From the NCBI GenBank assembly GCA_006384855.1, contig VCJN01001936.1:1-64000 (forward strand): 64,000 nt of DNA. Reading direction: 5' to 3'. The stretch's first letter is position 1. Every line of letters starts with the position of its first letter. The position numbers and the translations under genes are program-made. Shown here in pieces: positions 3,901 through 51,540 of the stretch. The notes below the pieces were generated by a model, which searched no databases, had not been told where the DNA came from, and saw only the letters and a program-made list of their open reading frames with translations. The DNA comes from Tetraselmis striata (Eukaryota; Chlorophyta; Chlorodendrophyceae; Chlorodendrales; Chlorodendraceae).

Positions 3901-5339
3901 GCGACAGTCGGGCGCGGCCGCCACGGTCATCGCGCCGCACTGGCCAAGACGACGTTGTTACCAAGCTGCTGCAAGACCTCGCCACCGAGACGATCGTCTA
4001 CCCGCCTACCCGCGACCTCTTCTTTCCTGGACGGCGGGGAACGCGCGCGGGGGTCGGACGGCCTGGCTGGAGCGTCGTGGCCTTTCGGGTGCCACGCCGG
4101 CCTGGCTGCACCTCCGCCGTGGGTCGCTAGGCCGGTCCATGGCCGTGCAGCCGTCGCTGCAGTACAGTGTACATTACCCGGGCCGCCTGTCCCACGCTCG
4201 GCGCGCGCGCTACCGGCTTGCCGTGCACCCCGGCTCTGAAGCGCCCTGGGCGGCATCGATGGGGGCGGAGCTCCAGAGTTTGTTGGGGACCGACGACATT
4301 GGTCAAGCGGCGCTCGGGTTGCTTATGGATTCGCTGGCTGCCGCAACTACGACAGCGGCATGCGCTCTTTCGCTACGTTTTCGAGCAGGAGGGCTTGCGC
4401 CCGCTGCATGCTACTACCAGCACGATCGTCCGCAACACTGCTTGGCTGGGCATTTAGGGTACCGTCGGCGCGAAGTCCCTTCTGCAGTACTACTCGTCCA
4501 TCAACAAGTACTTCCGCGACCACCAGCGCCAGCCTGTCGCCCTCGGCGAAATGGTGGCCGACGCGCGCCGTGGCGAAGCCATCCAGCAGGAGCGTCCGGC
4601 GGAGGAGGACGTCCGCGTCGCCCTGCCCGCGCCCGTTGCGGCTGACATCATGGACACCGCGATCGAACTTCGGCGAGCATTGGGGTGGGAACCCGCTAAT
4701 ATTGCGGACATCTGCGCTTTCAGAGCCGCGCTTGCGACGATTACGTCGTACGTCTTCGTATGCCGCGCGGAGTCCGGAATTAGCTGCGAGACCGGTGATG
4801 TAGTGGTCGACCGATCATCCGGAGGCATTCTGTTGTACGCCCGCAAACAGAAAGACGACCAGCAATTTAGGGTTTCCGCTAAGCCCCTGATGGACCTGCC
4901 CATCGCCGCCGTTCCGGACTTCGATGACTTGCTGGACTCGTACACCATCAGTCGCGACGCCTACTGCCGCCGTTTCTACGGCGCCAGCCCGCCGCCCAAG
5001 TTATGGAGTATCTCCCCGCTGGAGTCTTCCGCCACCTGGTCGGCTTCAGCCACTCTCACCGAGTGGTTGCGGGAAGCCTACCTGGCGGCAGGCGCCCAAC
5101 CGCCAACCGGTTTCAAGTGGACATCGCACAGTTTACGCAAGGGCGCGGCCTCCGCAGCAAGCTGCGTCGGCGTCCCCTTGCCAACCATCAGACACATGGG
5201 CGATGGGTCGAAGAACAGCGACGTGGTCACAAGGAAGTACATCGACCGTCCCTACCATGCGCCCGACTCGTCCCGCGTCCTGGAGGTTCTTCGGCTGGCT
5301 CGTTTCCGTCCGGCCGATGGACTAAGCTACATGTGTTAG

Positions 5340-10193: not shown

Positions 10194-13100
10194 CTATGCA
10201 AGCGCCCGCAGCGGCATGCTCGAGCGGAGCACACTCCACGGCGAGGCAAGGGTGGCCATATTCATGAGGAGGCGCGCGCTTTGGAACGTCAGGATGCCCA
10301 CCCACACCGCGGACAGCTGCGGCAAGCCCGCACCCAGTGCCGCGTGGAAGGCCGCCGCGACGAGAGCGCAGTTGGCGGCGAGCGAAGCCACGAGGTAGAA
10401 GTACCGGCGGCCGGCGAGCATGATGCCCTCCGTGGCCATGGAGCAGCAGTGGATGAACATGGTGGCCGCCACGAAGGGCACCAGGGCAGCCACCTGCGCC
10501 ACCACCCGCGGGTCCGCGGCAAAGGCACCCGCCCCCAGCAGCAGCACCGCCGAGGCGGCGGCCGCGTTGCCGACGCCCACCGCTGCGCCGGTGGCCAGCA
10601 GGCGCCCGCCCAGAGCGCGTGGCCGCGCCGCAACGTACCCGATCGCGGGCGGCAGAAACGCCTGCCCCGCCTGCGGCAGAACCAGCAGGACACACATCGC
10701 GGGGGCGTCAGCAAGACCCTCCTCCCCCCCCCCCCCCCCCGCTCCCCCCCCCCCCCCTCCGCTCCACTTCCTTCGCGCAAAACAAACACGAGCACTCCTT
10801 CAGGTGCCGGCACCTAGGAGAACCCGCATTACAACCCTCGTATTGTCACGGGTCAACCACGTTACATGCCACTATGATAAAAGTGACCCAGAAGCGTATA
10901 CTCCCCCACAAAAGTCTTGCCCCCAGGAAACACAGATTACGTGCCGGGGGAGGGGCGTCCCGGCTGTGCAATTAGATGGAAGTATTATTGGATATGTGGC
11001 ATTCCACCAACCGCAAGTATACTCGACAGCCACCGGGTGTATTCTCGTTAATTGGGAAATCAGATGGGTCATTCTGGCGTGGAGAAGTCGATAATAAAGT
11101 AGTGTGCGCGCGCACTGGACCAGTGTTGCAGTTTCCTCACTGTACCAGGTTACTTTCGGGGTACGTAAAGTGCCATTTTTAGCTAGCATATGTCTGCTAT
11201 TCTTCCAAATTCGCTGAGGCAGTGGTATCATGCGCCGGCTCCGAGCTTTTCATTGACTAGAAATGAGTCTCTTGGCAAAGAGTGCACGACTTTTATTAGC
11301 TTTGCCAGTGCTGGGAATGTTTTGCCGCAGTTGCAGCTCTGGTAGATCTGCCATCAGGTGCGAAATGATGTCCGACTGTAAGCGTCATCGCGCAAGGCCG
11401 CATTGGAAAGGACACGCGAAGCTAAACGCCGGATCGTGCCCTTCCCTCGGCCTGTGTATTGATGATCAGTACGTGGTTGCCCATCATTGGCTGCTCTGTC
11501 TCTAGGCTGCACACGCCGAGACAACATGCCAATTCAGCGAGGTCATACATACTCTGATGAGCGCGCCGTCACAAATGGAATATGGGTGCCGGCGGGGTAG
11601 TAGGAACACGGCGAATGAGAACCTGCCCGGCCTGCCAGCGGTGAAATGCAGACGAAACTGCAGTGGAAATAAAGTGATGTTCTTATAGATTGCCTGCAGG
11701 CCCAATCTGAGGCTTCTTATAACGAATGATAAGGGTTCTTATAGGTGCGGCAGCACATGGGGGAATGCCGTCAGCTCGCTCATGGCGCATCACTCGCGAC
11801 ACACCGAGGCAATCGCGGCCAGCCAGGGACGGGGCACACCATGGAGACGGCATCCCCAAAGACGCTGAAGAAAATGTTGACGCTGAAGGCGATGTGGTGG
11901 GCGCCCGTGCCGACGGGGCCCACGCTGGATGCCATGGCGTTTAGGACCAGGTAGGTGCCCACCTGCGCCACGGGCGAGGCGGCGGCGGGGGGGGGGGGGG
12001 GGGGGGGGGGGGGGAATTTCAGGAATGTTTAAGCTTTTTGAGGGTCAAGGGCCACCCCGGCGCATGATGCTTGATTGTATTTAATCACATGGGTGTGTCT
12101 GTGTCCATGTGTTGGGTGGGGGACTGGGAAGGGGGGGGGGGGGGGGGGGGCATTGACACCATTCAGATGCCCCCAACATATGGTAAGCACGCTTCGGGTC
12201 TCGCACAATGATGATTTTGGTCTTCCCACAAGGAAATGGAGACGATGAATAGGTCAACATATATCAGAATTAGCCAAGAATCCGCCAGTGCGCAATTCTT
12301 GACACGTGGTAGAACATTTCAATATTTGTTAATAACAAACTCGTAGCCTGTTGGGAATGGTCATGGTGCAGGTGCTGGTATGGAAAACGATGGCAAACTG
12401 GCGCTTGTGGGGATGAGTGGGTGGCGCAAGGGCATGGCGGATGAGCTTGGAAAGCGGTACGCGTGGGGAGGAAGGGCGCACATACCTTGATGAGCAGCAC
12501 CACGCCGACAGGCCCCGCAAACGTGACGAGGCGCAGCAGGCGCGCCGGCGACGGGATGCGCGCTCGCAGCCGCATCTGCCAGCCGGAGACCGGTGAGCCG
12601 GCGCGTTGCGGCTGCGGGCGCCTGGCGGCGCGCAGCAGCACCGCTGCAACCGCCGCCTAGCAAGGGATCAGCCAAACCGGTGAGAGGGTCGGCTTTTGAC
12701 TGCGGTTGTGCCAGCTCCTACGAGGGTGCAGCTCCCCTGGCGTACTACCAGGTGCCCAGACTCCTCCTCCTCAACGGCGACTCGCTCGCACTGTATCATA
12801 ACAGACCACAGATATATCTATATCTATGTCTATGTCTCTATCTATCTATATATGTATGTGTATGTGTATATCCACATATACATGTATGTCGGTATCTATC
12901 TCTTTATATTAATAAATGTCTATGTCTATCTATAACTACATCTACATCTACATCTACCGGTATGCCTATGTATGTACATATATACATATAGAAAAATCTT
13001 CATCTTTGTCTAAATATGTACTTGTATACACAGATCCATACATATCTATGTATATATGACATATCTATGTCTATTCATGTCTATGTGTCCGTGTTATTCA

Positions 13101-36800: not shown

Positions 36801-38055
36801 ATGATGGGTTTGATTGCACGGGGTAAAGTCGGGCGAAGGCAAAGTATTACATGCGGCAGGCAGGCAGGGGGCGGATGTGGGGGTAAGGCACTACTGGTCA
36901 CCAAGGGGTAAAGGCGACGAGATCGTCGACCTACTGATGGTAGTCACTAGCTAGCGACCTATAGCGACTAGATATCAGGTGAGGGGCTTCGTTACACGCA
37001 AGGGGAATAATAGGGTGAAGACAAAATACTACATGCGGTTGTTGTATCTCCATTTTTTGTGGAGGGGCTGGGCCACACTCAGTTGAGATGTAAACTCAGC
37101 GCATTATTTCAGTGTTTGCTCGAAGTGGCCCCTGTCGCGCTGTAGTCTTAGCCCGTCTGAGGTGCGGGCTTTAACTGCATCGATATTCGAGATTATCGAA
37201 GAGCAGCCAAAACCTTAGACCTAACTCTTACTCCTCTGGCTTAATCGCGTAAAGCGAGGAGGGCGAGAGCGATAAAAAAAGTCGGGACCGAGCCGGAACT
37301 TGCAGACCCTTGGCTATTTGTAATGGAGGCTCCTACGACCCCCGCGGCCAAGTGGGCCTTGACCAGTGTCACTTGGTCTTCCTCTTCCGTCGCTCATCCG
37401 GTTGTTGCCCGTCAATGGGCAACGCTTCCACAGTTGGTTCAGCTGTCGCAGCTGTCGGTAGGCGTAGAATAATTATTCAATTGAATTATTCAAAACGCCG
37501 CCTGCAAATTAGCGGGGAGCGCGCGACGCGCGCGGCCGTGCCGCCCGCCTTTTTTTCCGCCCCCGGGACAGGACTGGCACCAGTGAAACCCTTGCAGCGT
37601 CTCTACGACGGCCGTTTAGGCGGCAGCAATCTAGTTACGGAAAGCCCTAGGTAGGCGACGCTCCGTTAGTTTTCAAAAAATACATCATTTCGTCGCCACT
37701 ACCACTGTCACCACACCTCCAAAGCCGGCGAACTACACCCCTGCACATAAGTTTGGGGTCCCTTTTCGGCAGTCTCAAGACTTCAGAAGTCTAGGGTACC
37801 TGAACGTAGGGTATATGACATGAAACCCTGGAATCTCAGAGGGTTTTATAAAACCTGCATGACGAGTGGCTCAAACCGAAGCTTAAAGGCGTTTGACTAG
37901 GGTGTCACGCTGCACTTGGTGCGTGGATGGGCGTCGCCTGCAGTTGCACCAAAACCAGAGTCGATATCACGCACACGCCGACGCGCGTGAGTAGACAACC
38001 AAACGGCGGGATGGCCATGAACGCGTGAGGAAACACATTGGCGACGGGCTCGGGT
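33856..38055. other. Long intergenic stretch with no supported gene
   Basis: Short frames only. A (TTG)n run lies at 35,036-35,056, a tttgaaattt doublet at 35,564-35,580 and a poly-G run at 36,490-36,507. At 36,032-36,204 a 57-residue frame reads as an acidic, coiled-coil-like peptide (SEDEVERMHEQLEDI), possibly an orphan exon. Repeat R4 copy 2 is at 37,559. Confidence 0.5.
37559..37655 (+). repeat. Dispersed repeat R4, copy 2
   Basis: It matches 29,022-29,135 over the gggacagg-actggcaccag block and the following cagcgtctctacgacggc block. Confidence 0.65.
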
Positions 38056-38085
38056 AACAGTAATTTAACCTATTTTGCACCGTGG
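38056..38085 (+). repeat. Left terminal inverted repeat
   Basis: Thirty bases starting aacagtaat. They match the reverse complement of 50,406-50,435 at 26 of 30 positions. The preceding four bases are gggt. Confidence 0.75.
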
Positions 38086-38348
38086 AATTCATTTTGCACC
38101 GTAGGGTTTGTTTATACCCTAGTTCCCGGGTTTACTATCAGTACTTAAGACTCACTGGTGATGTAGCTTGGGTTTGTAGACCTTGGGTGCAGTGCAGCAT
38201 TCAACAGCATGAAGGCCAGCCGCGACGCATATCCAATGTTGGTTTTGGAGCATTTTGTCCAAAATGGGACAAGATGAGGCAATGAAATCAATATTTATTA
38301 TGATTATTACATCCAGCGGCTAGCTAGCCACAAGACGTTGCTGATAGT

Positions 38349-41300
38349 TTATTCGTTGAGCATCCCCAACTCAAGCAAGTCCTTCTTCGTGGCTGCGTTA
38401 AACTTGACGACTCCGCCGGGTTTGCGTTGCGCTGGGGTGGTTGACATGACGTGGACGCAATTGTTTCGTGGCTGGCTGATTTGCCACCCAGTTTGCGCAT
38501 ATGTCTTCACGACTTGGACGCTTTTACCGTACCACTTCTTTCTGACCATGGTGCCGTCCTCGTTGAACACCTCTCGACTTCCCGACGCGTCGTGGATGGC
38601 CTTCGCGTACGATAGGGGGACGGCTTCAACAAGCTTCCAAGGAAGCGTCAGGCACTTCTCCCAGCTTGTGTCAACTGGCTTCTTCCCTCCTTTTGTCTGC
38701 GCGTACAACCATAGGGGCATGAGGGGTTTGCCCTTTGCATCGGCATGGAAGGGCTCGTATACGGCCACGGTCAACGTGTCTTCGGTAGTCTCGCGCGACT
38801 TCACAAGCCCGATGACGAATCTCGACTCCCAATCACCAAGAGTTTCAGGACACTTGTCTTCCTCATGCACCTAACGATGACCAAGACCGCGAGCTATGTT
38901 AGTCCCGAGCGACACGCCACGCCATTTTTGTCCCAGCTGGGACAAAATAACAAGCAAGGTAGAAGAACAAAATTGTTTTGTCCCGTAAAGGACAAAAATG
39001 ACAAACAATGGGACTCACATCGGAGACGTCGATGACAACGAGGTTCGAGCCCTTTGCATCGCTGGGCGATGTGTTGTCATGAAGCCTCTCCTTGGCGCCG
39101 GCGTGAACTCCCCGGAAGGCGCTGTCATCTTGAAGCACTTGAGCACGAACCTCGGCTTCCACGCGAGCGGCTTCGGCATTGTTGAGGTCTGCGTTGGTAG
39201 CCATCGTGTGACGTGCCTCAGCAGGCGCGGTCTGCCCGTGCTCGCGCAAGAAGTCGTCAACTTCCTCTTTATGTTGCGGCCAGAACCCGGAGAAAGCTGC
39301 CGAAGGAGCAGTTTGCATCTCATCCAAGTCGTCGAGCAGATTCTTCCAGCTCTCGCGCTCGACTGGGGAGAAGTGCCACTGGACCGCCAGGTCCGTGATG
39401 TACGACCTGACCTTCTTGAAATCATCCAAGTACCTCTGGACCTTCACCGCGTCGGGCTTCTTTTTGTCGCAGAGAGCGTACAAAAGGGGCCGGCCCGCAC
39501 GAATCTCGGGCGTCCCAGTTGGCGCGCTCTTCAAGATCTGCACGGGCTCAGAAAGCGGTGTGTTGGACCACAAGGCGGTGCGCAACGAGCCGCCAGACGC
39601 GGCGGCGTCGTCACGGGTGAACTCGAATTTGTGCGGCTTACTGATGTCTTGAATGTGGTCTTGGAAATGGGGCCTTAACCACTCAGAGAAGTCGAGGGAG
39701 AATGAGAGCTCAGCAATCTCCGGAGTGGGCGAGAATGCCTTCGCCACCAAGTCAAGAAAGGCCTCGATTGTGTAGGCGGAGCTGCGAGATAGCGCAAGAC
39801 TGATGCGGCTGAAGATCTGGTCAACCCGTTCGTGAGTGTGCCCGACAGGCAAGAAGACCAAATGAATGACATCGCAGATGCCGATAGACACAAGCCAATT
39901 GCAGAGGGCGGCCACGTTCCTATTCTTGTTCTCCCTGACGGTGTTGTCCATCTGGATTCTGATGTACGGAATCTTTCTACCACGGTGTTGAATCTCCTGC
40001 ATCGCAAACCAGATTTCATCAGTCCAGGGCTACTGGACAACCACGGCGAACCTATCGGGAGGCTAACGAGCTCACCTTCATGATCGTGATCCATATCAGA
40101 GTGCACGTCGTGGACGAATCGTGGGGAATGGTGTTGGTGTAGTAGTAGATGTCGTCCGGGCGGTATCCGTCGTACTTCACACAGGTGAGGTGGTACTTGA
40201 GGAGCATGTCGGGCTTCACAGTCTTGGGGATGCGAACCCAGTGAGGCAGCAGGGTCTTCGCGGAGTCCATGCTATCAATTTCGAAGAAGAAGAAGTTTCC
40301 ATGGCCAAGGCGCGACTGGAAGACGGCGTTGTTCAGATCCCTTCGTTCCTGGCGCACTCTCTCGAGGTGTACCTTCTGCTCAGCTCTGACCTGACGCCTC
40401 ACCAGCTGCTGATGTTGACGGTGCACTTGACGTTCCTCTGGCGTCATGTCCTTTGTGCAAATCTCGCGAGCTTGGTCTCTGAGTGCTTTGCCCGCCGCGC
40501 ATATGGGACAGTGGCTGAATCGCTTCACCTTCGGCGTGGTGACATCCGGGAAGTCTTCCTTCCAAGTCCGGCGGAAAGTGTCGAACGATGCGAGCTTCAC
40601 TTCGCTCTCGGTAGCCAAATCTACAAAGGGGCAGGGGCGTGATATGTCGGTATACAAATAAGGTCTCATAATGCGAGACAGAAAAGTTCGGTCTGAAGTG
40701 GGTCGAAATAATTATATCGGTAGTGGGTGAATAATTCTGTAATCAGCATGGCGAAACAATCTGTCAACAGTGTGACGAAACGGTATGCCAGTAGTGGGAC
40801 AAAACCGTATCTCAGCAGTGGGACAAGACGTTCTCTCTGCAGTGGGACGATATCGGCTAATTATGTGGGACAAATACTTTTGCGGTCGGTGGGACGAAAC
40901 GGTATGCCATGAGCGGTGCGAAACGTTCTGTCATCAGTGGGACGAAATCGGTCCGGCGTCGGTGGGACTAAACGTTCTGGCGATAGCGGGACGAAACGTT
41001 CTGTCATCAGTGGGACAAAACGGTTTGTCATCAACGGGACAAAACGGTTTGTCAACAGTGGGACGAAACGGTTCGTCATCAGCGGGACAAAACGGTCTGT
41101 CAGCAGCGGGACAAAACGGTTTGTCATCAGTGGGACGAAACGGTTTGTCATCAGTGGGACGAAACGGTTTGTCATCAGTGGGACGAAACGGTCTGTCATC
41201 AGTGGGACGAAACGGTTTGTCATCAGTGGGACGAAACGGTTTGTCATCAGTGGGGCGAAACGGTTTGTCATCAGTGGGACGAAACGGTTTGTCAACAGTG

Positions 41301-42432
41301 TGACGAAACGGTTTGTCATCAGTGGGACGAAAGGGTTTGTCAACAGTGTGACGAAACGTTCTGTCATCAGTGGGACGAAACGGTTTGTCATCAGTGGGAC
41401 GAAACGGTTTGTCATCAGTGGGACGAAACGGTCTGTCATCAGTGGGACGAAACGGTTTGTCATCAGTGGGACGAAACGGTTTGTCATCAGTGGGACGAAA
41501 CGGTTTGTCATCAGTGGGACGAAACGGTTTGTCATCAGCGGGACGAAACGGTCTGTCATCAGCGGGACGAAACGGTATGTCATCAGTGGGACAAAATGGG
41601 CCTCACCACGGAGAATGGCGTTGTCGTCCTCGGCCCACGACTTGTAGTAGTAGTAGACGCAAATCTTGGTCATCCAGGGAGGTAGGTGCTTCTTGAAGGT
41701 CTCGCTGTTTCCGTCATGAAAAGGCATGATCTCGACGTGACCGAGGTCATCCGAGAAGAAGTGCTCGAGAAACATGCGCACATGCTCCCTCGGTCCGGTC
41801 TGTCTGCTCTCGTATTGCTTGCGCTGCCTGATGTACGTGGGTTCGTTATCCACCACCGACCGCTGGATCACGAGACGTCTGTGTTTCGAGACCTGATGCA
41901 AGACCTCCCACGCACGCCCACACGTGTAGATGGGGCCGCGATGATCGAAAGAGCGCAAGTAGCCACCGTGATCAAACATGTAATCGAACTTGTCGGATGC
42001 CGACTCGTAGCCGCCCCTGAGAACCTGAGCGAGCCGGTCAAAGGAGCGGTTCTGATTGCCAGAGTATACAGTCAACGCACGGTCCAACACGGCATCAACG
42101 AGGGCCTCTCCGCACTGTGTGTATAGCTTGTGCACGCACTTGCGCGAACAGCATGGCGACTGCTCGCTAGCCTCCTTGGCGAGCATGAGGCGGATACAAT
42201 CGCGAGAGGTGCGCTTGCTGATCAGAGACGAGACCTTGCCATTACCGCTTTCGGCGACCTCATCGCAGCCCTTGCCCCACGTGTACTTCCTTTTCTCAGG
42301 CTCCTTACGATCACTCGCACGCGCGTCGCAATCACACGAGTATCCACTGCGGCACGAACACAGCGGTAATGTAACTGTAGTGTCCGACGCGCCGGATCCT
42401 GGAGAGGAGGCCATGCTTTCGACCGCCGCCAT
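38349..42432 (-). CDS. DDE/RNase H-like transposase candidate, DUF7869-like (four exons)
   Basis: Exons: 42432-41607, 40620-40076, 40029-39019, 38870-38349. The sum is 2904 nt, 967 aa, with all introns GT-AG and in phase. The start is the ATG at 42432 (MAAVESMA), downstream of a poly-C run in the leader. N-terminal Cys clusters (C25, C27, C33, C35 and C94-C99) suggest zinc binding. HCPIC at 312-316 is a second Cys pair. FFFFEIDSMD places acidic residues at 391/394; QMDN at 483-486 precedes ENKNR; LPVGHTHERVDQ at 517-528 follows. An acidic pair, a DN..ENKN block and a GHTHExxD block fit a DDE/D RNase H-fold nuclease; I recall this pattern from DUF7869 proteins of algae and oomycetes. D391, D485 and E524 or D527 are my catalytic guesses. 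The first intron (41606-40621) is almost wholly 24-bp satellite; the second is only 46 nt. The gene shares a 545-bp divergent upstream region with the methyltransferase-like gene. Confidence 0.7.
40737..41600 (+). repeat. 24-bp satellite array 1 (~36 units) in an intron of the transposase-like gene
   Basis: The unit is 24 bp with the core cagtgggacgaaacggtt followed by tgtcat. Left-edge units are degenerate and central units nearly identical. It fills the intron 41606-40621 of the minus-strand gene. Twenty-four is a multiple of three, so several frames stay open; the long apparent proteins are artefacts. Confidence 0.9.
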
Positions 42433-42977
42433 GCAGCGCGGGGCGAGTGGGTGGGGGGGGGGGGGGGGGGGGGAGGACTGTGATCTGTGGTGAGGAAGAG
42501 TGACGGCCGATGACCGTTCTCGGACGGGCCGTTGACCGGGGTGCATAATATTCAGGTACGGGTCAAAATAATTGATGACTCAAATACCGTGCTATTTCGT
42601 GCTTCTTTCGTATGTCGGAAATAGTTCTATACTAGTAAGTACACCCAAATCCAATCCAAGGAATATATCATCCCATGAAGGAATATTATTGCCACGCCAC
42701 TGTACTCTCGTACCGTTATGACTCTCGAGTAGAGAATATTTTATCTTCCAGTAATAGTAATATATAGTCGCAGTAGTTAGCCCTGTATATTCGTCGCGGT
42801 GCAAAATACATGAACCTGATGACGACGACGAGGTACACTATAGTGTGCGCACGCGCGCCGTTGGTCCAGCAGGGGTCAGAGCGGCGGCAGACGGAAACCA
42901 CGTCATTTCCACCTCTCCCTCACCGCTTCCCACCAAGAAACACGCTCATCTACCGCGTCAACCTACCTACCGCCACA
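42433..42977. promoter_or_regulatory. Divergent upstream region between the two element genes
   Basis: A 545-bp gap between start codons in opposite directions, so it must hold both promoters. A poly-G run lies at 42,455-42,473. Short A/T-rich blocks around 42,730-42,770 could hold core promoter elements, but no clear TATA box was fixed. Confidence 0.5.
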
Positions 42978-45900
42978 ATGGCGCCGAAGAAGAACGAGCC
43001 TGCCAAGGACAAGGAAGACAAGGACGACGCCACCCCAGGTGAGTTGCGCGCGCGTACAGTAGCTGCCTGCCTGCTCGACGCGTGATACGGCCAGATCTAG
43101 CGAGTTCGGTTAGGGTTCACTGTAGAAGCGGTGTAATCTAGGACCACTCGAGGTGTAGGCAGACGAGTGGCAGCGTACAGTAGCCGCCTGCCTGCTCGAC
43201 GCGTGATGCGGCCAGATCTAGCGAGTTCGGTTAGGGTTCCCTGTAGAAGCGGTGTAATCTAGGACCGCTCGAGGTGTAGGCAGACGAGTGGGAATATAAA
43301 CACAAACGAGACGAGCGGCATCAGGGTCCTGCATGGTAGTATTACGTCCCGTCGAGGCAGCTGTTGCAAGCAGTAAGGATGCTAATTGGTGGTGGGAGGG
43401 GGTGGGGGTGAAGAGCGGCCAGGGGGAACCTCTGCCTGTACTCCGCCGTAAGGAGTGGTTTAATATTAGTGTGAAGCGCAGTACTTACAGACATTACATT
43501 ATTAAACCGCAGTACATAATGTATTGAAAATATTTTTGTCATCAGTGGGACAAAACGGTTTGTCATCAGTGGGACGAAACGGTTTGTCATCAGTGGGACG
43601 AAACGGTTTGTCATCAGTGGGACGAAACGGTTTGTCATCAGTGGGACGAAACGGTTTGTCATCAGTGGGACGAAACGGTTTGTCATCAGTGGGACGAAAC
43701 GGTCTGTCATCAGTGGGACGAAACGGTTTGTCATCAGTGGGACGAAACGGTTTGTCATCAGTGGGACGAAACGGTTTGTCATCAGTGGGACGAAACGGTT
43801 TGTCATCAGTGGGACGAAACGGTTTGTCATCAGTGGGACGAAACGGTTTGTCATCAGTGGGACGAAACGGTTTGTCATCAGTGGGACGAAACGGTTTGTC
43901 ATCAGTGGGACGAAACGGTTTGTCATCAGTGGGACGAAACGGTTTGTCATCAGTGGGACGAAACGGTTTGTCATCAGTGGGACGAAACGTTCTGTCATCA
44001 GTGGGACGAAACGGTTTGTCATCAGTGGGACGAAACGGTCTGTCATCAGTGGGACGAAACGTTCTGTCATCAGTGGGACGAAACGGTTTGTCCTCAGTGG
44101 GACGAAACGGTCTGTCATCAGTGGGACGAAACGGTCTGTCATCAGTGGGACGAAACGGTCTGACAGGATATGATATTTTTAGGTCGGAGGTCCAAGCGGA
44201 CATCAAAACCTACCGAGAAAGCAAAAGAATTCGATGCGCTCGGAGCGCTAGTCGGGAGAAAACACAAGGCGTCATCTTCTGTGCCCGAGCAGCCGGCGGC
44301 GAAGAAGAGCCGTGCAGCCTCAGCTTCTGCAGCTGGAGCCGGCGCTGAGGCATCAGGTAACCCCTGGAAACCGAGCCTTTTAAGAGGTAGAGTGCCGGCT
44401 TACGGCACGCACTCGCAAGGAGAAAGATCGGCCGCCTTGCGTTTGAGGGCCCGAATCAAGAGCGGGCAGGTCCTCTCAGATGCTCAAATGCAGACAGCGC
44501 GAAGGCTAATCGATTACGAAAAGCTCATGCAAGCTTACTATCAATCAGGTCCTCGCCTCTCCAATCATATGATTTTTGTGAGTGCACTGTGTCATATTGA
44601 CATTGTTTGAAATCATGTGTGTTGACAGGTTCGAAAGGACGCGCACAAGAGCCAGTAGCGACTAAAGCTTCAAAGGAATCCAAGGGAAAAGAAAAAGTTT
44701 CAGAAACGATTGTGACTCCAGGTAATTGTGACTGAAAGTATCAATCCCTGCCTTCTCACTCCCTTCGATTACTTTCTCGTCAATGAGTATCTGACGTTCC
44801 AACAGGTCGTAAATTGGCGCGGGCAACCGCGAAGGAAGCAGCTGGTAGATCGGGATCCCCAGGTAAGAAAAATCACGCTTGGCTTTGATGGTGTATGGCG
44901 ATACCGTTCAGGGGTTAATCGTGACGCCCACTGCAGGTGTGTTGAGTACTCTCTACTCATTCTTTACAGGTTCCCCCAATCAAGGCTCTTCTTTGTCTAA
45001 AGGCCCGCCTCAAGTACCGGAAACAGAGCCTGAGCCTGAAATAGAGCACACTGAGCCGGAGCCGGAGCCCGAGCCGGAGCCTGAAACAGAGCCCAATGAG
45101 CCCGAGCCAGAGCCTCGGCATGAGCCTGAAACTGAGCCCGCTCTGACGGAGCCCGAGCCGGAGCCCGAGCCGGAGCCCGAGCCCACTCGGCTTGACCCGG
45201 CGCCAGAGGCCGAGCTCGAGACTCCAGCGCCGACTACCGGGCAAGCGTCCGGTTCTGGAGCCTCTTGTTCTCGAGCCCCTGTTGCCGAGGCTCCGAGAAG
45301 GGTTCCTGAATTCCTCAGTATGTGCACGGATGAAGAGGTCTTCGGCACAGAGGAAGAACAGAGGCAACGGGCGGCGGAGAAGCGTAAGCAAGCTCTCGAC
45401 ATCACCGGCACTCCCGGACCCGAGAGGAAGACAAAGCTGATGACGGTCGCCTCTTACGACGACTTCTTTGACGAGAGGGACGGGTCCCAAGAACATGACT
45501 CCTACAGCGACTTTACCTCAAGGAGCTGGACTATCCACTGGTTCAAGAACGCAAGTGACAAGGTCGAGATCTATTTGTACATCGAATTGCACAAGGCGAG
45601 CCTGCTGACTGGCAAGGACTTTTTCGATGATCCGAAGGGGCCACTTCTCGCGTGTATCGGAAAGATCAAGGACGTCAAGCTGGACTCGGCCGGAAACTAC
45701 GGGGTGAGTAAAGCTTATATGATGTCTGAATTCGTGTCAATGTCGTGTTTCAATAAGTATTAATATTCTTGTGCTTGTTACCGCAGATATCTCTTGAACC
45801 TTATCGCTTGACAGTGCACAAGGAGTACAGGATCGATGTCAGCTTTGAGAGGTTGCTACTCCACGCGATCCAACCGTCACTCCCCTTCCAACCGCGGTTC

Positions 45901-48900
45901 CAGTCTTACTACGCATGGACTTTGGTCGAGCGCAATGTGCTGGCGCAGGCGCTGACAGGTTTCGCGTCGGGTCAGATTGACATCGATGACTTGGCCAACA
46001 TTGACAAGGATTTTAAGAACGCGCTTCCATACGTCAACACGTTGGCCGTCCCGCCGGCCTTGAATGGCTTCCACAACACCGGTGCCGTCGACTGGATCTC
46101 TTACGGCCACCTCAGAGTCGAGATTGCTGATCCAGAGGTGAAGACATCTCACGGTGGCGACATCAACATGTTGTACGCCGACAGAGTCAACCTCGTGGTC
46201 AACAAGGCTACGGGGCTGCCTTACATTTTCAGCTTCATATCCGATAGGTTCGTCGCTCCGCCGCCGGAATTTGAATTCCGTTCCCCAAAGCTCCAAGACT
46301 GCAATATGGTGGCGCAAAGCTACAAGGTAAAAGCCTATCGCGACCTGTTGTACCTATCCGGATCAGATATGTGTAGACAAATATAAATCAATACACAATG
46401 CAACTTACTGACATCCCTTTATTTTGCATTTGTTATTCAGAGGAATCCTTCCCTATCCGCCGAGAATTTCTCAGTGTCCTTCCCAGTGGTTGCCAAGAAT
46501 TTAGGCTTAACGTTCCGCGAAGAGTACGAGCCCCTCGCTCTGACCATGGCCAACTTCAAGGAGCTAGTCGCAGCAGACCAAGGCGGGGAGAAGCCGAGGT
46601 TGGCGGATTCAAGTTCCTACGAGCCAGAGATCGACGTCATCGACGAGTTTCTTCGCGCCCACGGCGCGCGTCAAGCCAACATCGACGGCAGCCACAGACG
46701 GGAGGCGAAGCGCATGGTGAAAGAAAACTACCCGCAAATCTACAACGCCAACAAAGGCATCCACCTCACGTCGACTAAGATGTACATCGGCCTCTCGCCG
46801 GAAGTCTGCCGCTACATGTCTATGAAGCTCAACGAGGCGGGTCACACCGTCGTGGGAGACACGTCGATGCACAAACTCCTGGTGAGTGACCCATTCTCCC
46901 AAATTACTATTTAGCTAACCGTGGCAGCAAATAGGCGTAATGTGTGACAAAAGTCGTTCTGTCGTTAGCGGGTTAAAAATATGTCACAGTGGGACGAAAC
47001 GTTCTGTCATCAGCGGGACGAAACGGTCTGTCATCAGTGGGACAAAACGTTCTGTCATCAGTGGGACGAAACGTTCTGTCATCAGTGGGACGAAACGGTT
47101 TGTCATCAGTGGGACGAAACGGTCTGTCATCAGTGGGACGAAACGGTTTGTCATCAGCGGGACGAAACGGTCTGTCATCAGCGGGACGAAACGTTCTGTC
47201 ATCAGTGGGACGAACCGTTCTGTCATCAGCGGGACGAAACGGTTTGTCATCGAGGTACAAGCGTTCGGAATTTTGAAATCGGTGCAATTGTTTCTGCAGA
47301 ACCTTCGCAGATGTTTCGAGAGCTGGTATGCAGAACAGGATGCAAATCGCCCCGGCTTTAGGGCACTTCCGCAAATCAGGGTAGTGAAGGAGTTCAAGAA
47401 GTCTGAAGTTCTTCAAGTTGAACTTGAGAAGATCGGCATAAAAGATGAGAAGAGCAGCGAGTTCTCAAATTTGATTGACCTCTGCTCGCGCCCACAACGG
47501 TGAGCTGCGTACATGTTGAAAATTTATCGTGTTGTTAATGCTGCTAGATTCTGACAAATGATTTGCGCAGTGTTTTTGAGCCCCTTGAGCAGATTTCTGA
47601 AGCCTACCGGCATGTGGACCTCGGGGTTCGAGGATGGGACGAAGCCAGAACCAAACTCGGAGACCTATTGGTGTACTACGAGCAAGAACTCGATAGACTC
47701 AAGCGGCGCCTCAATTACGGCAGGCAACTCACCCAGAAGGAAGTGAGCAAGGTTTACGAAGCAATTCGGAAGCCTATCAATACAATCCTCGATAACAAGA
47801 AGTACGGCTTCGGGAAAGACAGAGCTCACTTCCGAGTCGCCCTCATGGAGGTAAGTTGTGACCGACCCCAGTGTCTTAATCATATGGAATACTATCATTG
47901 ATTCCTTTCTCCGTACTGAAGTTTGTTTTTCGACCCAGGATGTCGGCTTTGGCCCCGGTACGCCCTGGCTAGACGAGCCGTCTCTTGCCAAGCAGAGCGA
48001 CAGCGCGGATCTCCCTGTGGGCCAGATGTACCTTGTGGTTGGACTGCTCATCCAAGGCGAGCACAGTGTGACCCCTTGCCTCTACGAGCTGGTGGATGAC
48101 ATAAAGCACGCCGGCGACAATGGCCCCATGGCTGTTACGCACACCAACGCGGAGTGGCTCGCGATGATTGAGACCTGGCGGTTTCGCGATCTCTTGCGTC
48201 GAGCAAGCATCAAGGTCATGAATGCCATTGACACGGCCAAGGGCAGGGAGGCAATCGGACTGCTGACGCCGGACGAACCGGCCAGGAACTGGGGGAAATA
48301 TCTCTCGGACCACATCATCGATTGGGATGTGGAAGACAAAGTGTCGGATGAGCAAGCGGCCGCTCGCCTTGACGCCATCACCAAGTTCCGAGCCAAGGTT
48401 GATGACCTCGGCCCAACAGGCTTCCCCAGAAAGTTCCAGGATTTGTTCAAAGGTGCTCATCGCTCCGGTCCTTTGATGGTCTTGCTGACCCCTCCTGCCA
48501 GATGGGGGGACATGAAATCCGCCGATTGTCTCACACCACTACCGGTTCGAGAGCATATCGCGGCCACCAACACCACCATCAGGAGTGAGGCGTATCGCAT
48601 CAAGAATCAGATGCCGGACTTGGTCATCTCCTTCTTCACAGAGTTTGCTCTTCTGGCATGTGCGCCGGAGCTTATCGCGGTTTCCGCTCCGAATGTTTCT
48701 AATGAGCTGTGGATATCGATGAAGGTAACTAAGATCTTGTGCAACCACAAATGCTCTTCTGAATTTTCGTTGTGAGCTATTAACCCGAATCTGTTTTCTA
48801 ATACACACAGGCCGGGGCACTTCCGGTGATGCCCAAGGGCGAAAAGGTCGACGAGGATGAGGAGATCTGGTTAGACCAGGAGCTTTGCAAGACTTGCATT

Positions 48901-50092
48901 GTGGAGGGGAACTTCAAGGCTCCCGCGACAAAACAATTCGTCGCGGACGCCATGTCGGCAGTTCGTGCCAAAAAGGCAACAGTCTTCATTGCCGACGCGC
49001 TTTTCGGAGCTGGTTCGCACACATGGGACTCGAAGGATGCTGCGTGGGGTACGGACGACTTCAACGACGTGTTTGCTTTCGCCAGGCAAGACAACCCCCA
49101 CAACCCCGGTGCGTACTAGATGACTGTGCTTTCATTTATCTCATTCCCGATTTACCCCCGCGCAGGCAGTTGAATATCCTGACTGGATCTTCTGACGTCC
49201 ACACTGCTCTCGATGGGTGCCATTTCTTCATTCACCTCTCGGACCAGCAACTTGGATCCGCAATCACAGCCGTTCAAACACAAGCTGAGGACCTCATCTA
49301 TCACGTCCTGACTTGGGCCAAGGATTGCGGGATGAAGATGGGCAGCTCTCTGCGTCACGACGCTGAGTACTACCTCTACGTCAGGAAGCCCCCGCCAAGC
49401 ATCATAGCTGACAACATCCGTTTCAATGATCCCCGAAGGTGAGATTTGATCCGTGGAAAATAGCCGGCTTGTATATTCTACTCGCTAAGCCGGTTGTGCC
49501 TTTCCAGGTTCTCTACATCCATCATGTTGGGTCACTTCAAAGACAGTTCGAAATTGAAGGACGAGAACAGACAGACGGTGAACAAGTACCAAAAGCCTAT
49601 CGCTCTCTTCGCCAAGCACCTTAAGATGGCGGCAACAGACGGGACAACAATCGTCGACGTCACAGCCGGAACCGGGACAACCGCGGTGCGTGAGGGGTGC
49701 AACCCGGGTGAGTGTCTTAATGGGGTCAGCATAAAAAAATTAACGCCTTGTGCGGTTTGCCACGCCTTTTCCAGGTCGCTGCGGCCTTTTCCGTGTGGTG
49801 GGACCATATGGATCATAGCTACTCGTTCACACACAGGAACTTGAAGATGATCCTCATTGACAACCAGAAGACGCAAATCGCTGGGATGAAGTCCAGGATG
49901 ACCTCATGGTTCAAAGAGAAGCCATGGGACGAGACTCAACAACTGCGTCCAAGTGACTTCGAGAAGTGGCCGGGTCTACCCCGTCCAATGACCGAGTTAG
50001 AGGAGCTGGAAGAGCGTGCAGCGGCGGAGAAGAGGAGGCAACAGGCAGCGGAGCGCCGAGGGGATTATGTGATCGAAGATGAGGATATGTAG
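42978..50092 (+). CDS. Large protein with C-terminal beta-class DNA amino-methyltransferase-like domain (14 exons)
   Basis: Exons: 42978-43038, 44183-44356, 44629-44721, 44806-44862, 44970-45703, 45787-46326, 46441-46881, 47300-47499, 47571-47850, 47939-48724, 48811-49112, 49166-49438, 49508-49685, 49775-50092. The sum is 4437 nt, 1478 aa, all GT-AG and in phase; the donor at 49112 is weak. The N-terminus is Lys-rich with an E-P repeat (about 145-193). The middle ~950 residues are not recognised. The C-terminus has the circular order of beta-class amino-MTases: DALFG at 1184-1188 followed by TWD (motif IV position), a strand ending in [14 protein letters not shown] at 1343-1344, and [13 protein letters not shown] from 1364 (motif I, SAM binding), then ILIDNQ. 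This resembles DNA N6-adenine/N4-cytosine methylases. Motif IV is DALF instead of D/N/S-PP-Y/F/W, so activity is uncertain. Introns 1 and 7 hold 24-bp satellite. Confidence 0.75.
43052..43293 (+). repeat. 121-bp tandem duplication in intron 1 of the methyltransferase-like gene
   Basis: 43,052-43,172 and 43,173-43,293 are nearly identical, with a handful of substitutions. The unit contains ggttagggtt. It begins a few bases after the donor site. Confidence 0.9.
43534..44165 (+). repeat. 24-bp satellite array 2 (~26 units) in intron 1 of the methyltransferase-like gene
   Basis: Same unit and same + orientation as array 1, but more homogeneous. It ends 18 bp before the exon 2 start at 44,183. 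Confidence 0.9.
46984..47260 (+). repeat. 24-bp satellite array 3 (~11 units) in intron 7 of the methyltransferase-like gene
   Basis: Same unit and orientation as arrays 1 and 2, with more cagcgggac variants. It lies between the donor at 46,882 and the acceptor at 47,299. Confidence 0.9.
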
Positions 50093-50119
50093 TACAATTC
50101 CGCAAAATTAGCCGCTCAT

Positions 50120-50336
50120 ATGTTTTGTCCCGGCTTTGACAGAGTTTCAGCCCCGGACGGCACAAACTACTTGGTAGCCATCACGGCCCCCGCTCTTTTG
50201 TCCCAGTTTGGACAGAGTTTCAGCCCCCGGTGGCGCAAACTTCTTGTAACCATCCCGTTTCCTTCACTCTTTTGATTTGTCCCTGCTTGGACGGAATTGG
50301 TTTCCCCGACTTGGCACAAAATGAACCAACCGGCAT
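50120..50336 (+). repeat. Subterminal tandem repeats near the right end of the element (~75 bp, three diverged copies)
   Basis: Units begin near 50,121, 50,197 and 50,272. Each has a tttgtccc word, a second ggaca/gaca word about 10 bp on, and, in the first two, gagtttcagcccc. The left end (38,256-38,276) and the 39,018-38,871 intron hold similar inverted tttgtcc/gggacaa pairs. These are candidate transposase-binding sites. Confidence 0.6.
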
Positions 50337-50405
50337 TCATATTAGCTTTCAATACCACTGCTGCCCCCAAACCCTAATTTAGACCTAACCACAATGCACC
50401 GCGTG

Positions 50406-50435
50406 CCTCGGGGCAAAATAGGTTGCATTACTGTT
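50406..50435 (-). repeat. Right terminal inverted repeat
   Basis: The reverse complement matches 38,056-38,085 at 26 of 30 positions. The next four bases outward are gggt, as on the left. Confidence 0.75.
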
Positions 50436-51540
50436 GGGTGCATTTGGTTGGGGTGCAGCCGTGTGGGCGGCGGCTAGTACATGTCGCGTTGCGATACTGG
50501 CATGGCATCAGTGTCGGCCACGCTCAGCAACACCCCCTTGGCTTTAAAACGCTATAACTTCTCAGGGTTTGCTCAGAAAATTGTTTTAAAGAAACCACGC
50601 GATTGCTCGTTGAAATCTGCGTCGAGAACGTTTTTCTAAAATCAAAAATTCGAGTTTTAGGGCCCCGGGAAAAATCCCCAAAGATGATCATCCAAGTTGC
50701 CCCTCACTGCCTCATGTGCCCACCCATGTCGGGCGCGTGGCTTTGCGCCAAGTGCGTGTCTAAGCCCCATACCCGGCTGTGCGAGAGCGTTATGTGTGTG
50801 GATGACCACGGACCACCAACACTTGGCATGTGCCGCCTCCTAGCGATACACACATCTACTACCCAAAATGCCATTTTCCACAGCATTTTCAAGGCGGAAT
50901 TTCATATTAATTAAAGTCCACGCCCCTACCGCGCCATCCCGCCCACGAAACGGTGCAACTGGCATTCCACCACGCGCCCCCATAGTAGAGCATCGCCCTA
51001 CGCCAAGGGCCCCATCGAGCGCCTCTCCTACGTGCGTTCGCCACAGAAACAGCCGCATTTTCACCCCGAAATTGCTCGCCACAGTAGTGGCCAACTTGTC
51101 GTTTCGGTGTCACGTCGGGCCTATAGCGACATGCTTTCAGTGGCCTACACGGACGGTGTGTGCAACTTTATGCCAAGGGCCGTATTCACCGAGTTTGGTG
51201 CGACGAGTGCCGCAATTTCCATAGGTTTGGACGGTTGGCGCAACCCACAATTTTCCAGCGCCAACGCATCATGCACCGATTTCTCGTTTTTTAAGTGCGC
51301 CCAGAGATGGTCGTGTTGTCGCGCGGGTGGGTATAAAGCGCACAATAGGCGTTCGCCCGAACTATTCCCACTGTAGTTAGGATGTATGCACATGCAGCCG
51401 GCGTTATCCTCGCCCATGCATGCGCTTTTCGATCGAAAATGCAGAACCCGGACTTATGTAGAGGGGTGTAGACAATATCTACATATAGAGTGACCTTGTA
51501 TACCACATACTTATATATACATATATGGTCGCCACATATA
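50436..51540. other. Intergenic, no gene recognised
   Basis: Short frames only. There is an AT-rich run with tatata words at 51,480-51,540. The LINE-like frames start just to the right. Confidence 0.5.

What the first reader, a model, noticed from the sequence alone, without database searches (positions are those of the whole stretch)
38056..50435. A 12.4 kb element pairing a transposase-like gene with a DNA-methyltransferase-like gene
Two matching inverted ends (26/30), flanked by gggt on both sides, enclose exactly two large divergent genes. One looks like a DDE-type nuclease; the other ends in a beta-class amino-methyltransferase domain. Both close in frame over 4 and 14 exons. I know of no standard DNA transposon superfamily with this gene pair. 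The methyltransferase could mark the element's own DNA, protect it, or guide where it inserts; those roles are inference.
Basis: partly seen in the sequence, partly recalled or inferred. Interest (0 to 1): 0.88.

Follow-up and report, generated by a model that had tools for sequence, protein, structure and literature searches.

The report
Two-gene algal transposon with methyltransferase-like protein
A green alga's genome carries hundreds of ends of a 12-kilobase jumping gene that pairs a transposase-like gene with a gene for a large protein ending in a methyltransferase-like domain; that protein probably binds the element's own DNA, and its altered active site leaves it doubtful that it methylates anything.

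Summary
Window 38056-50435 is a complete DNA transposon in a 224-Mb genome whose protein hits carry the JGI label Tetstr1 (read as Tetraselmis striata). Its end motif has 541 places genome-wide (reversed control 0). Of 20 other end pairs examined, 14 have exact 4-bp duplications, all different. All 3 insertions tested have empty sites. Of 11 copies read in full, 9 match all 18 exons.

One gene (4 exons, 967 aa) carries DUF7869. The divergent gene (14 exons, 1478 aa) ends in a beta-class amino-methyltransferase-like domain. Here the catalytic motif reads DALF, not DPPY, in 9 of 9 copies keeping the site. Exons 1-10 show purifying selection; the methyltransferase exons show none detectable.

Newly seen: one 24-bp repeat forms three arrays, intronic in the window, at corresponding places in 10 of 10 copies with both genes; its core motif is absent from the window's other 51.6 kb. 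I judge the second protein an accessory DNA-binding factor, likely for these repeats; binding and methylation are untested.

The parts
38052..38055 (.). left target-site duplication GGGT
38056..38085 (+). left terminal inverted repeat (AACAGTAATTTAACC...)
38349..38870 (-). transposase-family gene exon 4 (with stop)
38926..38984 (.). TTTTGTCCC / GGGACAAAA motifs in the third intron of that gene (about 38926, 38939, 38976)
   Evidence: element positions 871, 884, 921
39019..40029 (-). transposase-family gene exon 3; DUF7869 match in the genome search at 39604-39996
40076..40620 (-). transposase-family gene exon 2
40762..41596 (+). 24-bp minisatellite array 1, inside the first intron of the transposase-family gene
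41607..42432 (-). transposase-family gene exon 1 (with ATG)
42433..42977 (.). divergent intergenic region
42978..50092 (+). second gene, 14 exons: 42978-43038, 44183-44356, 44629-44721, 44806-44862, 44970-45703, 45787-46326, 46441-46881, 47300-47499, 47571-47850, 47939-48724, 48811-49112, 49166-49438, 49508-49685, 49775-50092
43535..44159 (+). 24-bp minisatellite array 2, inside intron 1 of the second gene
46687..46707 (+). GSHRREA motif (aa 636-642); ParB-like by recollection only
   Evidence: not detected as ParB by Pfam
46982..47251 (+). 24-bp minisatellite array 3, inside intron 7 of the second gene
48994..49005 (+). DALF at the place of motif IV (DPPY)
49653..49685 (+). [11 protein letters not shown] at the place of motif I (S-adenosylmethionine binding)
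50123..50204 (-). two right subterminal TTTTGTCCC motifs (about 50123 and 50196)
   Evidence: element positions 12068, 12141
50406..50435 (-). right terminal inverted repeat
50436..50439 (.). right target-site duplication GGGT

Best explanation
This is a high-copy DNA transposon with a DUF7869 transposase-family gene and a divergent second gene, which likely moves by cut-and-paste with a 4-bp staggered cut, while the second protein is likely an accessory factor that would bind the element's own repeats and may no longer methylate DNA. Shown: matching ends, 4-bp duplications, empty sites, many copies, two genes in divergent orientation, the DALF motif, and the shared 24-bp arrays. Inferred: that DUF7869 does the cutting (DDE chemistry), that the second protein binds the GGGACRAAA-type motifs in the arrays and near the ends, and that its methyltransferase domain now serves for binding rather than catalysis.
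For: Mobility: 541 end matches, control 0; 14 of 20 pairs with distinct 4-bp duplications; joined flanks find undisturbed relatives spanning the junction in 40 of 40 scored places for the window and for C154, and 38 of the 40 best rows for C54, the other two being its own flanks. Recent activity: C54 and C154, with different duplications, differ at 1 synonymous site in the transposase-family gene. Pairing: 48 of 150 DUF7869 matches have a listed second-gene match within 15 kb in divergent orientation, against about 3 expected from density; 7 of 18 JGI proteins like the second gene have a consecutively numbered DUF7869 neighbour. Selection: pooled pN/pS 0.24 for the transposase-family gene and 0.55 for the second gene; exons 1-10 of the second gene are constrained in 3 of 3 pairs tested (p 1e-4 to 2e-7). 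Arrays: three clusters in 10 of 10 copies with both genes; the unit has 2916 exact places, control 0; GGGACRAAA 63+4 times in the element, 0 in 51,620 bases outside. Catalysis doubtful: DALF in 9 of 9 copies keeping the site and 21 of 21 Tetstr1 proteins checked; exons 11-14 p 0.39-0.87.
Against: Binding of the arrays is not shown by any search; they may be passive intron minisatellites. 98 of 150 DUF7869 matches have no listed second-gene match within 15 kb and 4 have one in another orientation (the list of second-gene matches was cut at 150 of 267). 6 of 20 end pairs lack the duplication. The motif stretch around DALF is kept in most copies, which would also fit an unusual but active enzyme. 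Both AlphaFold models were unusable (pLDDT 41.0 and 34.5), so the DDE fold rests on the family match and an inferred topology. Exons 11-14 hold few synonymous changes (7 to 13.5 per pair), so the selection test there is weak.
Confidence: 0.6

Rival explanations
1. The second protein is an active amino-methyltransferase with an unusual motif IV; it methylates the element's own DNA (6mA or 4mC) to protect it, to escape silencing or to regulate transposition.
For: Order of motif IV, QKP motif and motif I is as in beta-class enzymes; Pfam N6_N4_Mtase above cutoff; PADLOC and PHROG methyltransferase matches for the JGI relatives P0099 and P0092. Related families keep an aromatic residue in that place: DANY in metagenome protein P0044, DSNY in a second multi-copy family of this genome, the latter aligning weakly to CcrM with DSNY at DPPY. 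Proposed in print for similar proteins (PMC12477816 passages).
Against: DALF lacks both prolines; no detectable purifying selection on exons 11-14; no methylation data were within reach.
Confidence: 0.25
2. The second gene is a passenger without a role in transposition; copies move with or without it.
For: C70 (7344 bp, intact ends, 4-bp duplication) keeps a near-complete transposase-family gene but lost most of the second gene; C470 lost most of both and carries satellite DNA. The second gene is less constrained (pN/pS 0.55 against 0.24).
Against: Exons 1-10 are under purifying selection and 9 of 11 copies keep matches to all its exons. Derivatives could be mobilised in trans; the C70 transposase match itself holds one stop codon.
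Confidence: 0.14
3. Two ordinary host genes lie between chance inverted repeats; there is no transposon.
For: None found.
Against: 541 end matches, distinct 4-bp duplications and empty sites.
Confidence: 0.01

Closest known systems
Sola1-1_Ec32 of Ectocarpus (PMC12477816; passages seen)
   Same: Large algal DNA transposon; a second gene on the strand opposite to the transposase; its product has an N4/N6-type DNA methyltransferase domain.
   Different: 21.5 kb and 1104 aa there, 12.4 kb and 1478 aa here; ParB-like domain reported there, only a GSHRREA motif here, not recognised by Pfam. The motif IV of the Ectocarpus protein was not seen. Whether its Sola1 transposase is related to DUF7869 could not be tested.
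Sola2 elements of social amoebae (PMC3627910; passages seen)
   Same: 4-bp target duplications, terminal inverted repeats, a transposase of similar size (888 aa there), unrelated genes captured in some families.
   Different: AT-rich duplications there (AWWT), mixed ones here; the captured gene there is Fanzor1.
Fungal DNA transposons carrying TET/JBP dioxygenases (PMC12730594; passages seen)
   Same: A DNA transposon carrying a gene related to DNA-modifying enzymes.
   Different: Oxygenase of methylcytosine, several other transposase superfamilies; Zisupton makes 8-bp duplications, here 4 bp.
Beta-class amino-methyltransferases such as CcrM and RsrI
   Same: Motif order and the QKP and motif I stretches; the sibling DSNY family finds 6pbd (CcrM) and 1eg2 (RsrI).
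   Different: Motif IV reads DALF here; the window's own domain found no PDB chain and no phage record.

Membership tests
[quoted passage not shown]
   (14 of 20 pairs, and GGGT in the window)
[quoted passage not shown]
[quoted passage not shown]
   DUF7869 match; model unusable, pLDDT 34.5, though its strand and helix order around the conserved acids would fit; no PDB relative by sequence
Sola superfamily | 4-bp target duplication | tested here: met
   4 bp for Sola2 from PMC3627910 passages
Sola superfamily | transposase sequence related to Sola1, Sola2 or Sola3 | not testable with these tools
   no Sola reference sequence was within reach; Pfam names only DUF7869
Zisupton/KDZ | 8-bp target duplication (as given for Zisupton) | tested here: not met
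   4 bp
Algal ParB plus N4/N6-methyltransferase accessory proteins | methyltransferase-type domain encoded on the strand opposite to the transposase in one transposon | tested here: met
Algal ParB plus N4/N6-methyltransferase accessory proteins | ParB-like domain | tested here: inconclusive
   GSHRREA resembles ParB box II by recollection; no Pfam ParB match at E up to 10, no supporting plasmid hit
Beta-class amino-methyltransferase | QKP motif and motif I (GTGTT) after motif IV | tested here: met
Beta-class amino-methyltransferase | catalytic motif IV (D/N/S)PP(Y/F/W), as recalled | tested here: not met
   DALF

The most novel reading that the evidence does not exclude
The element runs a self-recognition system: its second protein, descended from a ParB/methyltransferase fusion, recognises dozens of copies of a 24-bp address repeat that the element keeps in its own introns and near its ends, and so tells element DNA from host DNA, either by coating it after loss of catalysis or by marking it with a methyltransferase of a new motif class (DALF/DANY/DSNY). 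A second multi-copy methyltransferase-like family in the same genome (DSNY motif) has its own, different 25-bp array beside it.
Probability: 0.15. Interest if true: 0.78.

Novelty: new variant of a known kind. Interest (0 to 1): 0.52.

Why it matters
It gives a young, high-copy element with near-identical copies in which a transposon-borne methyltransferase-like gene can be tested directly: native long reads would show at once whether its DNA is modified. It also suggests that such genes need not be methylating enzymes: here the N-terminal part is constrained and the methyltransferase part is not detectably so. If the array idea is right, it would be an address system by which a eukaryotic transposon recognises its own DNA.

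Tried and rejected
Host-gene pair between chance repeats: rejected by empty sites. Zisupton/KDZ: 4-bp, not 8-bp, duplication. Viral origin: no relative of either protein in viral contigs. Structure: AlphaFold models of P0044 and P0046 too poor to search with, so no fold search was made. PDB by sequence: nothing for the second protein or useful for the first. ParB domain: not supported by Pfam, plasmids or PDB. A TPPA stretch in exon 10 first taken for motif IV was dropped because relative P0002 reads TPFA there. JGI gene models leave out the start of my exon 12 (LSDQQL; 0 of the 21 Tetstr1 proteins checked contain it); I kept it because metagenome protein P0044 has LSDQQL there and the stretch is well conserved among copies. 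My note called the C70 transposase gene intact; one search shows one TAG in its match, so I withdraw that. Literature searches listed no paper that I recognised as describing this element; only passages of five papers were read. Iyer 2011 and Petroll 2025 were seen only as references.
Full report
Check of the observation. The ends at 38056-38085 and 50406-50435 are 26 of 30 complementary and GGGT lies outside both. I modelled the two genes by reading the frames between splice sites: a minus-strand gene of 4 exons and 967 aa, and a plus-strand gene of 14 exons and 1478 aa, all introns GT-AG. Pfam names DUF7869 in the first (E 2.7e-37) and N6_N4_Mtase at the C-terminus of the second (30.7 bits, cutoff 26.7).

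The genome. 43 of 44 protein hits to the methyltransferase-like domain, 47 of 48 to the transposase-family protein and 18 of 18 to the long form of the second protein carry JGI names Tetstr1, which I read as Tetraselmis striata (recalled). The two exceptions are a metagenome protein, P0044, and a DUF7869 protein of the liverwort Riccia sorocarpa (29% identity over 44%).

Mobility. The end pattern has 541 places (282 and 259), its reversed control 0. Of 20 end pairs fetched, 14 have an exact 4-bp duplication and all 14 differ; 6 do not (C58, C200, C226, C436, C455, C488). Four of the 20 pairs are 15.8 to 28 kb apart and may hold other insertions. Joined flanks were searched for three insertions. 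For C154, 40 of 40 scored places span the junction at 99%; for the window, 40 of 40 at 94-96%; for C54, 38 of the 40 best rows span it (79-97%), the other two being its own flanks. Each search scored only its best candidates (315, 1173 and 217 candidates). The window copy sits inside one unit of a 1521-bp repeat that is tandem elsewhere.

Copies. Ten further copies were read in full. With the window, 9 of 11 match all 18 exons; C140 has lost most of transposase exon 1, and C470 keeps the ends but little of either gene. Both genes read open in 3 of 11: the window, C363 and C154; the others carry stops, frameshifts, changed splice sites or losses. C54 and C154 differ at one synonymous site in the transposase-family gene, so movement is recent. 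C470 is filled with three units of the 1521-bp satellite and arrays in both orientations. C70, read later, is 7344 bp with a 4-bp duplication, a near-complete transposase-family gene with one stop in the domain match, and most of the second gene gone.

The pair. Genome-wide, 150 DUF7869 matches were scored of 548 candidates, and the search rang in 0 of 14 control genomes. Of these 150, 48 have a listed second-gene match within 15 kb in divergent orientation, 4 have one in another orientation and 98 have none; about 3 would be expected from density. Only 150 of the 267 second-gene matches were listed, so 48 is a lower bound. Among JGI models, 7 of 18 second-gene proteins have a consecutively numbered DUF7869 neighbour.

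The methyltransferase-like domain. The order is motif IV, QKP, motif I, as in the beta class. Motif IV reads DALF in 9 of 9 copies that keep the site, C238 having a deletion there, and in 21 of 21 Tetstr1 proteins checked, P0044 being the one of 22 without it. P0044 reads DANY. With P0044 as query, the same genome shows a second methyltransferase-like family: 80 matches, a few of them the present family. One locus has at least 40 relatives at 91-100% among 73 candidates. It reads DSNY and is 29% identical to the window's domain (E 1e-19). It finds CcrM (E 9e-5) and RsrI in the PDB, chiefly over the QKP and motif I stretch; DSNY lies opposite DPPY only in a weak second stretch. I take these as one clade with an altered motif IV.

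Selection. Pooled pN/pS is 0.24 for the transposase-family gene and 0.55 for the second gene. By parts, exons 1-10 of the second gene have more synonymous than non-synonymous change in 3 of 3 pairs tested (p 1e-4, 1e-5, 2e-7), while exons 11-14 do not (p 0.87, 0.65, 0.39). Few changes fall in exons 11-14, and pairs share history, so this is a pointer and no proof. The transposase-family gene and the second gene also differ in depth: synonymous divergence is higher in the second gene in nearly every pair printed (win-C363 is an exception), and exon 7 differs between two otherwise near-identical copies, which suggests exchange between copies.

The arrays. A 24-bp unit (GTGGGACGAAACGGTTTGTCATCA) forms three arrays, in the first intron of the transposase-family gene and introns 1 and 7 of the second gene. 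Three clusters at corresponding places occur in 10 of 10 copies with both genes; whether each is intronic in the other copies was not checked one by one. The unit has 2916 exact places genome-wide, control 0; the 100 places listed lie on contigs that also carry end matches. GGGACRAAA occurs 63 and 4 times (two strands) in the element and 0 times in the window's other 51,620 bases; the minus-orientation copies lie in the last transposase intron and near the right end. Outside the element the richest array of period 18-32 in the window has 4.1 copies. The DSNY locus has its own unrelated 25-bp array.

Mechanism. Shown: a DNA transposon with a 4-bp duplication and two divergent genes. Inferred: DUF7869 cuts and joins. 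The predicted order of strands and helices around the conserved acids would suit an RNase H fold, but the model is poor. Inferred: the second protein is an accessory DNA-binding factor, likely for the GGGACRAAA motifs; catalysis is doubtful. A GSHRREA motif recalls ParB, and the DSNY family has GNHRREA at a like place, but no search supports a ParB domain.

What is known. [quoted passage not shown] PMC3627910 (passages) gives 4-bp duplications for Sola2 and methyltransferases in viral Mariner elements. So the kind is known; the altered motif IV, the pattern of constraint and the arrays are what is added here.

Noticed in passing
L110, L112, L113 (G000:C761:86740-93910): A second, multi-copy methyltransferase-like family (motif IV DSNY; 40 scored relatives at 91-100% of 73 candidates) with a 25-bp minisatellite upstream; its transposase, if any, was not identified.
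   Followed up: partly
window 37727-38055 and 50436-51469; C470 interior; C83: A repeat of about 1521 bp, tandem on C83 and three times inside C470, hosts the window's insertion; its nature is unknown.
   Followed up: partly
P0010 (TSEL_005106): A JGI gene model fuses DUF7869 to the methyltransferase-like C-terminus, though the two genes are on opposite strands in the intact element: a rearranged copy or a model error.
   Followed up: no
P0052, P0053, P0058: JGI models join DUF7869 to a protein kinase, a ubiquitin hydrolase piece and a cytidylyltransferase domain; capture or mis-joined models.
   Followed up: no
window 4458-5339 (+): Open frame with TSHSLRKGAAS, which by recollection looks like a tyrosine recombinase of DIRS type; no Pfam match.
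   Followed up: partly
window 38056-50435 and C363: Near-identical copies differ sharply in exon 7 (93.65%) and exon 11 (96.6%) of the second gene, as if exchanged with other copies.
   Followed up: no
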